The position numbers and the translations under genes are program-made. Source: Lewinella sp. W8 (GTDB lineage: Bacteria; Bacteroidota; Bacteroidia; Chitinophagales; Saprospiraceae). From it: a stretch of DNA of 64,000 bases. Below the pieces are notes generated by a model. That model was not told the origin of the DNA, ran no database searches, and saw nothing but the letters and a program-made list of their open reading frames with translations. Positions 48,316-51,340 of this stretch are shown in pieces. The stretch is taken from NCBI RefSeq assembly GCF_004375085.3, contig NZ_SNAQ03000011.1, forward strand, positions 62,001-126,000, in the 5' to 3' direction. Position 1 is the stretch's first letter; each line of letters begins with the position of its first letter.

Positions 48316-48693
48316 ATGCTTCACCTTCCCTTTTTGTACGTAGCCCCCAGTGAACTCGGAGGTAAGGGAGTGTTTACGGGACAGGCCATTGAAGAAGGAA
48401 GCATAATTGAACTGGCACCCGTCATTATTCTGTCGGCGGAAGATCGGGAAGCCATTCACCAGACCCGGCTCCACGACTACTATTTCCAGTGGGGCGGAGA
48501 TCGGGCGGCGATTGCCCTTGGCCTCGGATCACTCTATAACCACGATGAGTCTCCGAACGCCGACTTTACCCTCGATTATGAGTTCAAGCAAATCAGGTTT
48601 ACCTCCATCAGGAAAATTGAGGCCGGGGAGGAGATTAAGACCAATTACCGGGTCGGCGATAAGGACATGAGGCTCTGGTTTGAGGCAGAGTAG
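48316..48693 (+). CDS. SET domain-containing protein
   Basis: The 125-residue protein is a minimal SET domain: GGKGVFTGQAIEEGSIIELAPV, LGLGSLYNHDESPNADFTLDY (the NH pseudoknot motif) and IRKIEAGEEIKTNYRVG (the C-terminal motif with the Tyr). SET enzymes transfer methyl groups from SAM to lysines; the small bacterial forms have few known substrates. No pre- or post-SET zinc Cys is present. It follows the winged-helix pair by 61 bases on the same strand and precedes the tRNA-like array. Confidence 0.85.
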   Translation: MLHLPFLYVAPSELGGKGVFTGQAIEEGSIIELAPVIILSAEDREAIHQTRLHDYYFQWGGDRAAIALGLGSLYNHDESPNADFTLDYEFKQIRFTSIRKIEAGEEIKTNYRVGDKDMRLWFEAE

Positions 48694-48959
48694 GTAAATC
48701 AGGGGGCATTTAAGGCGAAGTTTCGGGTTTTACCAGAAGGTTTTTCGCTTCATTAACGGAAGCGGATGCCGATATCACAATAAATGAAGGAAGAAAGTAA
48801 TTGAAATTTTAAAAATAATACTTATTGGGGTTATTTATTGACAATAATGTAAATTTTTACCTATTTTATTGAATGAATTTGTTTTTTAGCGCTCATTGGT
48901 TGCATCTTTGCTATTGCAAGGGCGGAACAACGGTTCGCCATCAAACTTGCCGACAACCA
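48694..48959 (+). other. AT-rich leader region of the tRNA-like array
   Basis: No gene is visible. From about 48780 to 48890 the DNA is strongly AT-rich, unlike the coding surroundings. A promoter-like pair lies at 48878-48910. The stretch 48914-48950 can form a hairpin (GCAAG-GGCG with CGCC-CTTGC) just before the first tRNA-like unit. Confidence 0.5.
48878..48910 (+). promoter_or_regulatory. Candidate promoter of the tRNA-like array
   Basis: TTTG at 48878-48881 and CATCTTTG at 48903-48910 resemble the Bacteroidota -33 (TTTG) and -7 (TAnnTTTG) elements with a spacer of 21 bases. The first RNA unit begins 50 bases downstream. Confidence 0.5.
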
Positions 48960-49139
48960 TGTAGAGTGATGAAATTGGCAGCCATGCCCGCTTGTCTCGC
49001 GGGTGGGGATCACGGTAAAAACCCGGCCGGATTTCTCCTCGGAGGTTTCTTCCCGCATCGTTCGGGCGGATTCTCCGAGGAGCAAGTTCAGTCAGCGGCT
49101 AACCGCTCCGTGCAGGTTCGACTCCTGCCTCTACAGCCA
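48960..49139 (+). ncRNA. tRNA-like RNA, type A copy 1 (giant variable arm)
   Basis: The 180-base unit has a full tRNA frame. The acceptor TGTAGAG (48960-48966) pairs with CTCTACA (49129-49135), then G73 and encoded CCA (49137-49139). The D arm is ATG-11 nt-CAT with the GG pair. The anticodon stem CCCGC/GCGGG holds loop TTGTCTC, GTC in the anticodon place. The T arm GCAGG-TTCGACT-CCTGC is canonical. The region between anticodon and T arm is 108 nt (49004-49111) instead of 4-24. It folds into GGGG/CTCC and CGGT/ACCG at the base, with a 10-bp CTCCTCGGAG stem (49035-49044 with 49073-49082) and a CCCG/CGGG tip. The D arm resembles tRNA-Leu/Ser; G73, GUC and C38 are tRNA-Asp identity features. Role in translation unproven. 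Confidence 0.8.
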
Positions 49140-49167
49140 CGGAAGGAGAATGCTTCTTTCCCTTAAT

Positions 49168-49289
49168 TGTAGGATGACGAAATTGGCAGCCGTGCCCGCT
49201 GGTCTCGCGGGTGAGGGTTCGGGGATAAACTATTGATCTAGCTGATAGCTAACCCCCTCATGAAGGTTCGACTCCTTCTCCTACAGCCA
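49168..49289 (+). ncRNA. tRNA-like RNA, type B copy 1 (50-nt variable arm)
   Basis: The 122-base unit has acceptor TGTAGGA with TCCTACA, then G73 and CCA. The D arm is ACG-11 nt-CGT, anticodon stem CCCGC/GCGGG with loop TGGTCTC (GTC at 34-36 but G instead of the near-universal U33), and T arm GAAGG-TTCGACT-CCTTC. The variable region is 50 nt (49212-49261) with base stem TGAGGG/CCCTCA and an upper hairpin CTAT/ATAG (49230-49233 with 49245-49248). The words ATAAAC before and GCTAACC after the hairpin recur in type A, so A and B share one variable-arm plan. A 28-nt spacer separates it from type A copy 1. Confidence 0.8.
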
Positions 49290-49319
49290 ACACCGGATGC
49301 ATGTATGGCATCCACACTT

Positions 49320-49499
49320 TGTAGAGTGATGAAACTGGCAGCCATGCCCGCTTGTCTCGCGGGTGGGGACTACGGTAAAAACCCGGCCGGATTTCTCCTC
49401 GGAGGTTTCTTCCCGCATCGTTCGGGCGGATTCTCCGAGGGGCAAGTTCAGCCAGCGGCTAACCGCCCCGTGCAGGTTCGACTCCTGCCTCTACAGCCA
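49320..49499 (+). ncRNA. tRNA-like RNA, type A copy 2
   Basis: It is nearly identical to type A copy 1. Differences are mostly pairing-neutral: the base stem GGGG/CTCC becomes GGGG/CCCC, and the 10-bp arm has one U-A turned into U-G. CCA is encoded at 49497-49499. The preceding 30-nt spacer contains the hairpin GGATGC-7 nt-GCATCC. Confidence 0.8.
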
Positions 49500-49527
49500 C
49501 GGAAGGAGAACGCTTCTTCCCCTTACT

Positions 49528-49649
49528 TGTAGGATGACGAAATTGGCAGCCGTGCCCGCTGGTCTCGCGGGTGAGGGTTCGGGGATAAACCACCTATCTA
49601 TCAATTGGCTAACCCCCTCATGAAGGTTCGACTCCTTCTCCTACAGCCA
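49528..49649 (+). ncRNA. tRNA-like RNA, type B copy 2
   Basis: It is identical to type B copy 1 except in the variable-arm hairpin (about 49590-49608). There the stem CTA/TAG is replaced by CCA/TGG, a double compensatory change in the second pair, and the loop sequence is different. This is direct evidence that the hairpin is under selection as RNA structure. CCA is encoded at 49647-49649. Confidence 0.8.
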
Positions 49650-49680
49650 ACACCGGATGCATGTATGGCATCCACTACTT

Positions 49681-49857
49681 TGTAGAGTGATGAAACTGGC
49701 AGCCATGCCCGCTTGTCTCGCGGGTGGGGATCACGGTAAAAACCCGGCCGGATTTCTCCTCGGAGGCTTCTTCCCGAATTGATCGGGCGGATTCTCCGAG
49801 GGGCAAGTTCAGCCAGCGGCTAACCGCTCCGTGCAGGTTCGACTCCTGCCTCTACAG
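49681..49857 (+). ncRNA. tRNA-like RNA, type A copy 3 (no encoded CCA)
   Basis: It is like the other type A units, but the tip of the long arm differs: CCCGA-loop-TCGGG replaces CCCG-loop-CGGG, gaining one pair. After G73 the DNA reads CGA, so CCA is not encoded and would have to be added by nucleotidyltransferase. The terminator stem starts seven bases later. It is the last unit of the array. Confidence 0.75.
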
Positions 49858-50068: not shown

Positions 50069-51340
50069 ATGAGTATCGTCGAAATGAAAGTTCCCGTGAT
50101 CGGGGAATCCGTAACCGAAGTAACCCTTTCAGAGTGGCTGAAGGCCGACGGAGAATATGTGGAACTGGACGAGCCCATTTGTGAATTTGAATCCGATAAA
50201 GCCACGCTGGAGTTTCCGGCCGAAGCTGCCGGAAAGATCATCCACGTCGCCGCCGAAGGCGACGACCTGGAAATCGGTGCCCTGGTGGCCAAGATTGACA
50301 CCAGCGTAAGCCAGCCTTCCGGAGGAGGTGATGCCCCCGCCGAACCAGCCAAGGAGGAGACCCCCGCTACTCCCGCCCCCGCCGAAGAAAAAGCTGCTCC
50401 CGCTCCGGCGGCCAGCACCTCCTACGCTACCGGCACGCCGAGCCCCGCGGCGGGAAAAATTCTCCGTGAAGCAGAGGTAGATCCTTCTCAGGTCAACGGT
50501 TCCGGCCGCGACGGAAGAATCACCAAGGAAGATGCCCAGCGCGCTGCCGCCAATAAGGCCACGGCACCTGCGCCCGCGCCCAAAACGGAAAAAGCCGCTC
50601 CGGCCCCCAGCCCCGCTCCCGCCGCTAACTTCAGCCGGGAAGAACGGACGGAGAAGATGAGCCGGATGCGCCGGACGATCGCTACCCGACTGGTCCGGGC
50701 CAAAAACGAGACGGCCATGCTGACGACCTTCAACGAGGTTGACCTCAGCGAAGTGATGGCCCTGCGGAAACGCGTACAGGAAAAGTTTGTGGAGAAGTAC
50801 GGCGTAAAACTCGGCTTCATGTCCATCTTCGCCAAGGCCTGCGCCCAGGTACTGATGGAAATGCCCGACGTGAACGCCGCCCTGAGCGAAGACGGCAAAA
50901 GCCTGATTTACCACGACTACGTCGACATCAGCTTCGCGGTTTCTACCCCCACGGGACTGGTCGTGCCCCCCATCAAGAACATCGAAAGCCTGCATTTTGC
51001 GGACATCGAGAAGAAACTGAAGGACCTCGCGGCCCGCGCACGCGACAACAAGCTGAGCATCGAAGAGATGCAGGGAGGGACCTTTACCATCACCAACGGT
51101 GGGGTGTTCGGCAGTATGATGAGTACGCCGATTCTGAACGAGCCCCAGAGCGCCATCCTCGGGATGCACAACATCATTCAGCGCCCGGTGGCGGTGAACG
51201 GGCAGGTGGAAATCCGACCCATGATGTACCTGGCGCTGAGCTACGATCACCGGGTCATCGATGGCTCCAGCTCCGTTACCTTCCTGGTAAAAGTGAAGCA
51301 ACTCCTCGAGGATCCGACGCTGTTGCTCCTCGGTTTGTAA
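50069..51340 (+). CDS. odhB: Dihydrolipoyllysine-residue succinyltransferase (2-oxoglutarate dehydrogenase E2)
   Basis: The 423-residue protein has an N-terminal lipoyl domain (lipoyl-Lys K44 in ESDKATLEF), a long Ala/Pro linker, a peripheral subunit-binding domain ([22 protein letters not shown], about 135-170) and a CoA-acyltransferase core ending in [20 protein letters not shown] with the catalytic His and Asp. The sequence [17 protein letters not shown] and the [18 protein letters not shown] start point to the succinyl type (SucB/OdhB) of the TCA cycle. The E1 gene (sucA) is not adjacent, and the next upstream feature is the tRNA-like array. A terminator follows. Confidence 0.93.

What the first reader, a model, noticed from the sequence alone, without database searches (positions are those of the whole stretch)
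48960..49857. Array of five tRNA-like RNAs with giant variable arms
Five tandem units (A-B-A-B-A) keep a complete tRNA frame: 7-bp acceptor, 3-bp D stem with GG, 5-bp anticodon stem with 7-nt loop, TTCGACT T loop, G73, CCA in four of five. The region between anticodon and T arm is 50 nt (B) or 108 nt (A), far beyond the usual maximum of about 24. I know of no described tRNA class with such arms. They could be special tRNAs, non-translating aminoacyl donors, or RNAs that borrow tRNA processing (RNase P, CCA enzyme, EF-Tu).
Basis: partly seen in the sequence, partly recalled or inferred. Interest (0 to 1): 0.95.

Follow-up and report, generated by a model that had tools for sequence, protein, structure and literature searches.

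The report
tRNA-like carrier RNAs for asparagine synthesis
A family of tRNA-like RNAs with very long variable arms, found across many Bacteroidota genomes and in some phages, carries most of the marks by which cells recognise an aspartate tRNA, and is likely used not to read codons but as a carrier on which aspartate would be turned into asparagine.

Summary
In detail: five tandem tRNA-like units (A-B-A-B-A, 48960-49857) with 108- or 50-nt variable regions, missed by ARAGORN and Rfam's tRNA model. They belong to a structured, covarying RNA family: strong matches in 138 of 248 genomes of the order, 31 of 296 of the phylum, and 79 viral contigs. In 136 of 136 cellular units with a 7-nt anticodon loop, G34, U35, C36, C38, G73 and G2-C71 (published aspartate determinants) and U1-A72 (published GatCAB determinant) are invariant, while positions 33 and 37 do not suit decoding. 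The two tRNA-Asn and two tRNA-Asp genes found in the window's genome are all G1-C72. Among 64 hand-chosen genomes with GlnRS and AsnRS, GatB occurs in 32 of 32 with the RNA and 0 of 32 without; in the wider order sample the link is weaker (132 of 138 against 55 of 110). E. coli-type AsnB was found in 0 of 40 RNA-positive genomes, though broader relatives occur in 38. An AsnC-like gene often lies beside the RNA. Most likely it is a non-decoding carrier that would be charged by AspRS and amidated by GatCAB to yield asparagine.

The parts
48838..48867 (+). promoter-like site upstream of the array
   Evidence: consensus scan, 10 of 12 matches; 2 sites found in the region against 0.8 +- 0.9 in shuffles; weak
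48960..49136 (+). unit A1, long form (108-nt variable region), through G73; CCA 49137-49139 encoded
   Evidence: R1 113.3 bits
49141..49161 (+). hairpin in the spacer A1-B1
49168..49286 (+). unit B1, short form (50-nt variable region), anticodon loop TGGTCTC; CCA 49287-49289
   Evidence: R1 132.4 bits
49295..49313 (+). hairpin-forming spacer B1-A2 (GGATGC...GCATCC)
   Evidence: sequence; not listed by the scan
49320..49496 (+). unit A2, long form; CCA 49497-49499
   Evidence: R1 114.7 bits
49501..49520 (+). hairpin in the spacer A2-B2
49528..49646 (+). unit B2, short form; CCA 49647-49649
   Evidence: R1 133.9 bits
49655..49673 (+). hairpin in the spacer B2-A3
49681..49857 (+). unit A3, long form; no encoded CCA (CGA follows G73)
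   Evidence: R1 112.6 bits
49863..49894 (+). terminator-like hairpin closing the array
   Evidence: 14-bp stem followed by a T tract
48316..48693 (+). neighbour: SET-domain protein, recurs upstream of the array in 8 of 38 examined loci, the window included
   Evidence: Pfam PF00856 E=5.7e-14; cluster
50069..51340 (+). neighbour: sucB, 2-oxoglutarate dehydrogenase E2
   Evidence: NCBIfam TIGR01347 over cut-off

Best explanation
The array encodes tRNA-like RNAs that carry most of the aspartate identity set together with the U1-A72 pair, and they are predicted to be charged with Asp by AspRS and amidated to Asn by GatCAB, so that they likely act as dedicated, non-decoding carriers for making asparagine. 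Shown: the conserved fold, the invariant identity positions, the loss of decoding features, the co-occurrence with GatB, the G1-C72 pair of the tRNA-Asn and tRNA-Asp genes found in the window's genome, and the frequent neighbourhood of an AsnC-like gene. Inferred: transcription, RNase P and CCA maturation, aspartylation, amidation, release of free Asn (by hydrolysis or an unknown enzyme), and control by asparagine through AsnC. The logic: the genomes checked keep one AspRS that looks discriminating, and in the window's genome a tRNA-Asn that GatCAB should not accept; an extra acceptor with the anticodon AspRS reads (GUC) and the acceptor end GatCAB reads (U1-A72) would join the two enzymes. 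Asn on a GUC anticodon would corrupt Asp codons if it decoded, which would explain the lost U33 and purine 37; the giant arm may also keep it from the ribosome.
For: Identity: G34, U35, C36, C38, G73, G2-C71 and U1-A72 in 136 of 136 distinct units with a 7-nt loop, while position 33 is T110/G14/C12 and 37 is T130/C4/G1/A1. Published: five strong Asp determinants G73, G34, U35, C36, C38, plus G1-C72 and G2-C71; U1-A72 confers amidation, G1-C72 and U20a prevent it (passages of PMC9976931); positions 20-20a are CA in 54 of 54 units. GatB: 40 of 40 RNA+ against 5 of 37 RNA- hand-chosen genomes; those 5 are exactly the RNA- genomes without GlnRS; among the 64 with GlnRS, 32/32 against 0/32, with the switch inside f1 (9/9, 0/7), f20 (9/9, 0/5) and f23 (3/3, 0/2). 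AsnRS in 77 of 77, so GatCAB is not needed for Asn decoding there. E. coli-type AsnB over cut-off 0 of 40 against 13 of 37; G000 and the one-contig genome G211 show no match to AsnA or to either AsnB model. Own tRNA-Asn x2 and tRNA-Asp x2 all G1-C72. One bacterial AspRS over cut-off in each of 26 genomes. AsnC-like gene divergent beside the RNA in 15 of 38 loci and RNA beside 45 of 80 AsnC-like genes. Precedent: D. radiodurans, T. thermophilus and B. bacteriovorus make Asn with GatCAB (PMC4206432, passages and section 16).
Against: G1-C72, which the review calls crucial for aspartate identity along with G2-C71, is absent from all 136 units. In the whole order sample (248 genomes) the link is weaker: RNA+ 132 of 138 have GatB, but so do 55 of 110 RNA- genomes. 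GlnRS was looked up in only 3 of those 55 (absent in all 3), and RNA- is not proof of absence, since at most 14 of several hundred to two thousand first-look candidates per genome were scored. Two of the six RNA+ genomes without GatB are rated 99% complete (G149, G241), though all six are in 290-530 contigs. 38 of 40 RNA+ genomes hold at least one protein of the broad asparagine-synthetase family and 3 of 40 have AsnA, so the RNA is not always the only possible route. Of 20 genes examined beside AsnC-like genes without the RNA (20 of 35 such loci), 14 were S41 peptidases, 4 FadD ligases, 1 a mevalonate-pathway decarboxylase, 1 without match, 0 asparagine synthetases: a simple asnB-for-RNA swap is not supported. 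PMC4206432 reports U1-A72 tRNA-Asn in all 18 genera with AsnRS, GlnRS, GatCAB and no Asn synthetase, some of them Bacteroidetes, unlike the window's genome. No expression or biochemical data; no enzyme is known here that would release Asn.
Confidence: 0.6

Rival explanations
1. Aminoacyl donor: the RNA is charged with Asp and amidated to Asn as above, but the Asn (or Asp) would be handed to a lipid, cell-wall precursor or peptide by a transferase instead of being released.
For: Same identity and GatB evidence; non-translating tRNAs that feed cell-wall or other enzymes are known (recalled).
Against: Among the neighbour clusters of 38 loci the one most widely shared is the AsnC-like regulator (15 loci), which points to Asn pools; I identified few of the other clusters, so a transferase is not excluded.
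Confidence: 0.14
2. Regulator or sponge: the RNA would bind AspRS and/or GatCAB, or report Asp/Asn charging, without carrying amino acid flux.
For: Multi-copy arrays, a conserved internal loop GG.A(T/C)AAA / CTAA in the arm and, in many long units, an apical GGGTTGACCACTAA motif; AsnC neighbour.
Against: Strict conservation of the acceptor end (U1-A72, G2-C71, G73) in 136 of 136 suggests charging and amidation, not binding alone.
Confidence: 0.1
3. Decoy or replacement tRNA in phage-host conflict: it would soak up or resist anticodon nucleases aimed at GUC tRNAs.
For: Phage contigs carry the units (79 of 79 contigs with the signature), some near tRNA clusters.
Against: Wide chromosomal presence (138 of 248 genomes of the order), tie to GatB and invariant U1-A72 are not predicted.
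Confidence: 0.05
4. Decoding tRNA: an Asp (or serine/leucine) elongator with an oversized arm.
For: Complete cloverleaf with A15, T48, GG and T loop; closest ordinary tRNA is tRNA-Leu, 57 bits at best; G73 with a long arm is also SerRS-like (PMC7609411, passages).
Against: U33 missing in 26 of 136, pyrimidine 37 in 134 of 136, arm 47-108 nt in 54 units; G73 excludes LeuRS (recalled); SerRS does not read the anticodon (recalled), so invariant GUC+C38 would be unexplained; ordinary tRNA-Asp is present.
Confidence: 0.04

Closest known systems
tRNA-dependent asparagine synthesis on tRNA-Asn (ND-AspRS + GatCAB; Deinococcus, Thermus, Bdellovibrio; PMC4206432, passages and section 16)
   Same: GatCAB in genomes with AsnRS and GlnRS, few or no Asn synthetases, U1-A72 acceptor for amidation
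   Different: There the acceptor is the decoding tRNA-Asn and AspRS is relaxed or duplicated; here the acceptor is a separate RNA with the Asp anticodon, one discriminating-looking AspRS, and the tRNA-Asn genes found in the window's genome have G1-C72
Bacterial tRNA-Asp
   Same: G34, U35, C36, C38, G73, G2-C71
   Different: U1-A72 instead of G1-C72, mostly pyrimidine 37, 47-108 nt variable region, tRNA-Leu-like D loop
tRNA-Leu (class II)
   Same: 3-bp D stem, D loop like GAATTGGTAGA of the genome's own tRNA-Leu, long variable arm; best-scoring ordinary tRNA under R1
   Different: G73 not A73, Asp anticodon invariant, arm several times longer
Non-translating tRNAs, e.g. staphylococcal tRNA-Gly for cell wall (recalled)
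   Same: tRNA removed from decoding to serve metabolism
   Different: Those keep ordinary arms and serve a transferase (recalled); this is predicted to serve an amidotransferase
tRNA-Sec-like selC* tRNA-Cys and allo-tRNAs (PMC7609411, passages)
   Same: non-canonical cloverleaf with longer variable arm in bacteria
   Different: those also have longer acceptor and anticodon stems; this keeps 7/5/5 stems and an enormous variable arm

Membership tests
decoding (elongator) tRNA | cloverleaf with 7-bp acceptor, D arm, 5-bp anticodon and T stems, G18G19, T-loop | tested here: met
decoding (elongator) tRNA | U33 | tested here: not met
   G or C in 26 of 136 units, G in both B units of the window
decoding (elongator) tRNA | purine at 37 | tested here: not met
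   pyrimidine in 134 of 136; requirement recalled
decoding (elongator) tRNA | recognised by tRNA models | tested here: not met
   ARAGORN 0 in the window, in 20 loci with units and in L244; Rfam tRNA none in the array; of 20 related loci one unit at 27.3 bits, below the 29-bit gathering score
aspartate identity (tRNA-Asp) | G34, U35, C36, C38, G73 | tested here: met
   136 of 136; determinants from PMC9976931, passages
aspartate identity (tRNA-Asp) | G2-C71 | tested here: met
   136 of 136
aspartate identity (tRNA-Asp) | G1-C72 | tested here: not met
   U1-A72 in 136 of 136; the review calls G1-C72 crucial
GatCAB substrate | U1-A72 and no U20a | tested here: met
   U1-A72 136 of 136; A20a in 54 of 54
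GatCAB substrate | amidation of the Asp-charged RNA | not testable with these tools
   needs in vitro assay
tRNA-dependent Asn synthesis | GatCAB present although AsnRS and GlnRS are present | tested here: met
   32 of 40 RNA+ genomes have GatB, AsnRS and GlnRS; the other 8 lack GlnRS
tRNA-dependent Asn synthesis | no AsnA/AsnB | tested here: inconclusive
   E. coli-type AsnB 0 of 40, AsnA 3 of 40, but broad AEB homologues in 38 of 40
tRNA-dependent Asn synthesis | tRNA-Asn with U1-A72 and a non-discriminating AspRS | tested here: not met
   own tRNA-Asn x2 are G1-C72; AspRS mostly lacks the recalled ND residues; other genomes' tRNA-Asn not seen
tRNA-Leu | A73 | tested here: not met
   G73 in 136 of 136; requirement recalled

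The most novel reading that the evidence does not exclude
A new class of RNA: a tRNA-derived carrier cofactor for amino-acid biosynthesis. The RNA is loaded with Asp by the ordinary AspRS, converted to Asn by GatCAB, kept out of the ribosome by its non-decoding loop and giant arm, and gives free asparagine; in many species its gene stands under an asparagine-sensing AsnC, and phages bring their own copies to feed protein synthesis.
Probability: 0.52. Interest if true: 0.97.

Novelty: new variant of a known kind. Interest (0 to 1): 0.92.

Why it matters
It is a conserved tRNA-like RNA family, spread over much of Bacteroidota and into phages, that standard tRNA and Rfam searches miss. If the mechanism holds, a cell has split tRNA's two jobs and kept an RNA only for metabolism, a living example of an RNA-borne amino-acid carrier. 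It would also explain why genomes with AsnRS and GlnRS keep GatCAB, and how bacteria without a clear asparagine synthetase may make asparagine.

Tried and rejected
asnB-for-RNA swap: I guessed that the 550-aa genes beside AsnC-like genes in loci without the RNA were asnB; 20 proteins scanned were 14 S41 peptidases, 4 FadD ligases, one mevalonate-pathway decarboxylase and one protein without a match, so this was dropped.

Weak R1 hits as family members: in the window's genome the five units score 113-134 bits and the best ordinary tRNA 57; order-wide best E-values have a gap between 1e-12 and 1e-20, so weak hits were counted as ordinary tRNAs; this was checked only in the window's genome.

Encoded CCA as a trait: 13 of 54 units only. 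The Rfam sR32 match at 50650-50725 lies inside sucB and below the gathering score; taken as chance.

Published names: none of the eight text searches (one search returned nothing) listed, by title and start of abstract, a paper that describes such an RNA; subscription papers and preprints are mostly outside the library. Passages of PMC7609411 and PMC8450103 named nothing like it.

Rows dropped: one A4 row with N (L068) and one degenerate 11-nt-loop unit (L142:3037-3200) were left out of the 136; two phage copies (L289 cut by the contig end, L311 altered acceptor) are told in the text. L028 (from G047, a hit) gave no unit and was left out of the neighbourhood count. My notebook said 24 of 26 AspRS keep the lysine; the print shows 23 of 25, one not displayed. 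My notebook's 37 neighbourhood loci are 38 on recount.

Full report
1. The observation. The window holds five tandem tRNA-like units at the stated place. ARAGORN sees none of them, Rfam shows no tRNA there at E<=1, and a search of the whole genome with the Rfam tRNA model gives 52 matches, none in the array. The array has a promoter-like site, hairpin spacers and a terminator-like hairpin with a T tract, as a processed polycistronic transcript would.

2. A real RNA family. BLASTN of unit B1 matched 28 of 60 genomes, the own genome included. Alignment of 39 units (of 54 distinct) gave 98.0% paired cells and 113 two-sided changes (29.6 +- 4.3 in shuffles; slid controls 0-18) for the cloverleaf plus variable arm. 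The arm has a 4-bp stem, a bulge of about 4 nt, 3 bp, a conserved internal loop (GG.A(T/C)AAA opposite CTAA) and a variable tip. A covariance model, R1 (14 sequences), found strong matches (E<1e-15) in 138 of 248 genomes of the order (counted) and, at E<=1e-13, in 31 of 296 genomes of the phylum. Fifty-eight distinct R1 matches beside AsnC-like genes again covary: 182 two-sided cells against 53.8 +- 6.0 (that alignment leans towards the model).

3. What it is built like. Under R1 the best ordinary tRNAs of the window's genome are tRNA-Leu (up to 57 bits; units 113-134), so the body is Leu-like. The identity is not: G73, and anticodon GUC. In 136 of 136 distinct units with a 7-nt loop, G34, U35, C36, C38, G73, U1-A72 and G2-C71 never vary, whereas 32 (C76/T60), 33 (T110/G14/C12) and 37 (T130/C4/G1/A1) do. 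All come from searches with one model or its seed, so a unit lacking several of these would have been harder to find. A15 and T48 are constant (54 of 54), so the L-shape contacts are likely kept.

4. Reading the identity. A review gives the strong aspartate determinants as G73, G34, U35, C36 and C38, calls the pairs G1-C72 and G2-C71 crucial, and says that U1-A72 confers amidation of Asp-tRNA-Asn while G1-C72 and U20a prevent it (PMC9976931, passages). The units have this set except G1-C72, and carry the amidation pair with A20a. In the window's genome I found two tRNA-Asp and two tRNA-Asn genes, all G1-C72, and tRNA-Gln genes with A1-U72 and C1/U72; the three tRNA-model matches that ARAGORN left out or named oddly do not read as Asn, Asp or Gln. 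The genome is in 91 contigs, so a gene may be missing. So the array RNAs are the only Asp-identity RNAs found there with the GatCAB signal.

5. The test. I chose 40 RNA+ and 37 RNA- genomes by hand before any protein-family search of genomes. GatB: 40 of 40 against 5 of 37. AsnRS: 77 of 77. GlnRS is missing in 8 RNA+ and in exactly the 5 RNA- genomes that have GatB. Among the 64 with GlnRS: GatB 32 of 32 against 0 of 32 (Fisher p 1e-18, which ignores relatedness), with concordant switches inside three families. E. coli-type AsnB over cut-off: 0 of 40 against 13 of 37, one more RNA- genome just below it; AsnA: 3 of 40 against 4 of 37. The broad asparagine-synthetase family is found at E<=1e-30 in 38 of 40 RNA+ and 34 of 37 RNA- genomes; many of these lie in longer frames (about 600-690 aa) and may be paralogues (inferred); the window's genome and the one-contig genome G211 have none. 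I then ran GatB over the whole order sample: RNA+ 132 of 138, RNA- 55 of 110; outside the 77, 104 of 110 against 52 of 89. The six RNA+ genomes without GatB are in 290-530 contigs, two of them rated 99% complete. The RNA-/GatB+ half may lack GlnRS (3 of 3 checked do) or hold missed RNAs; this is unresolved and lowers confidence.

6. AspRS. Each of 26 genomes (17 RNA+, 9 RNA-) has one bacterial AspRS over the cut-off; the other matches are weak (below 130 bits) in frames of 493-596 aa, those that I could place being AsnRS. The four archaeal control genomes also rang at that threshold, though the call does not say with which protein. The site where E. coli has Lys82 (recalled) is lysine in 23 of 25 that could be read (not G531, G107; G083 not displayed), and the site of P. 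aeruginosa His31 (recalled) is never histidine in 26. So AspRS looks discriminating, and would need an RNA with a GUC anticodon.

7. Surroundings. In the window the array lies between a SET-domain gene and sucB. Elsewhere the gene upstream and divergent is an Lrp/AsnC-family regulator in 15 of 38 loci; for one of them the best solved relative is E. coli AsnC (2cg4, E=3e-33, next best 1.7e-20), and for two the best NCBIfam model is AsnC, below that model's cut-off. From the other side, 45 of the 80 nearest AsnC-like loci in named genomes carry the RNA upstream and divergent, 136-295 nt away (median 168). E. coli AsnC activates asnA, and asparagine reduces this (PMC8707732, passage). Of the other 35 loci, 20 upstream proteins were scanned and none is an asparagine synthetase. 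Whether the window's genome has AsnC was not searched.

8. Phages. The signature occurs in 79 IMG/VR contigs, all with an R1 match of at least 70 bits. Of 52 distinct copies, 50 keep U1-A72 and 51 G73 (one is cut by its contig end, one has an altered acceptor); the anticodon loop was part of the search pattern, so its constancy there says nothing. One protein cluster is shared by 41 of 79 loci; its member scanned matched a terminase large subunit. Of ten phage proteins scanned, the others gave portal, exonuclease, PhoH, a carbamoyltransferase, two families of unknown function and three without match. That terminase is 25-26% identical to its best phage relatives, which I recall as crAss-like. 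One phage unit had no match in 50,697 phage records.

9. Mechanism. Only sequence and co-occurrence support these; none is measured. The published precedent makes Asn on the decoding tRNA-Asn with a relaxed or second AspRS (PMC4206432, passages and section 16). That paper reports U1-A72 tRNA-Asn in all 18 genera with the three enzymes and no Asn synthetase, including some Bacteroidetes, which does not fit the window's genome; its supplementary tables were not seen.

10. Verdict. A real and widespread RNA family with an identity set that is hard to explain except by AspRS and GatCAB. The carrier role is my best reading at about 0.6.

Noticed in passing
L245-L323 (IMG/VR contigs): Phage contigs carry copies of the RNA, 41 of 79 loci with a shared terminase-containing cluster; contigs up to 288 kb.
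   Followed up: partly
L071, L072, L074-L076, L084, L025, L027 and others, variable-arm tip: Many long-form units share an apical motif like GGGTTGACCACTAA, often flanked by GAGCCGAC...GGCCGACC, across several families; its role is unknown.
   Followed up: no
G000:C11:160300-161400 (L235) and G000:C2:151660-152342 (L219): Clusters of atypical tRNAs (Gln C1/U72, Ser, Gly, Phe, Leu; Asn, Asp, Ile, Lys) that look like a mobile-element or phage tRNA array.
   Followed up: no
L142:3037-3200: A degenerate unit (56.6 bits, 11-nt anticodon loop) beside intact ones, perhaps a decaying copy.
   Followed up: no
G297:C1:285799-287433: asnB match interrupted by two stop codons in an RNA-negative genome.
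   Followed up: no
window 49136-49137 and relatives: C74 follows G73 in 54 of 54 units although CCA is encoded in only 13, so the G73-C74 step itself may be selected.
   Followed up: partly
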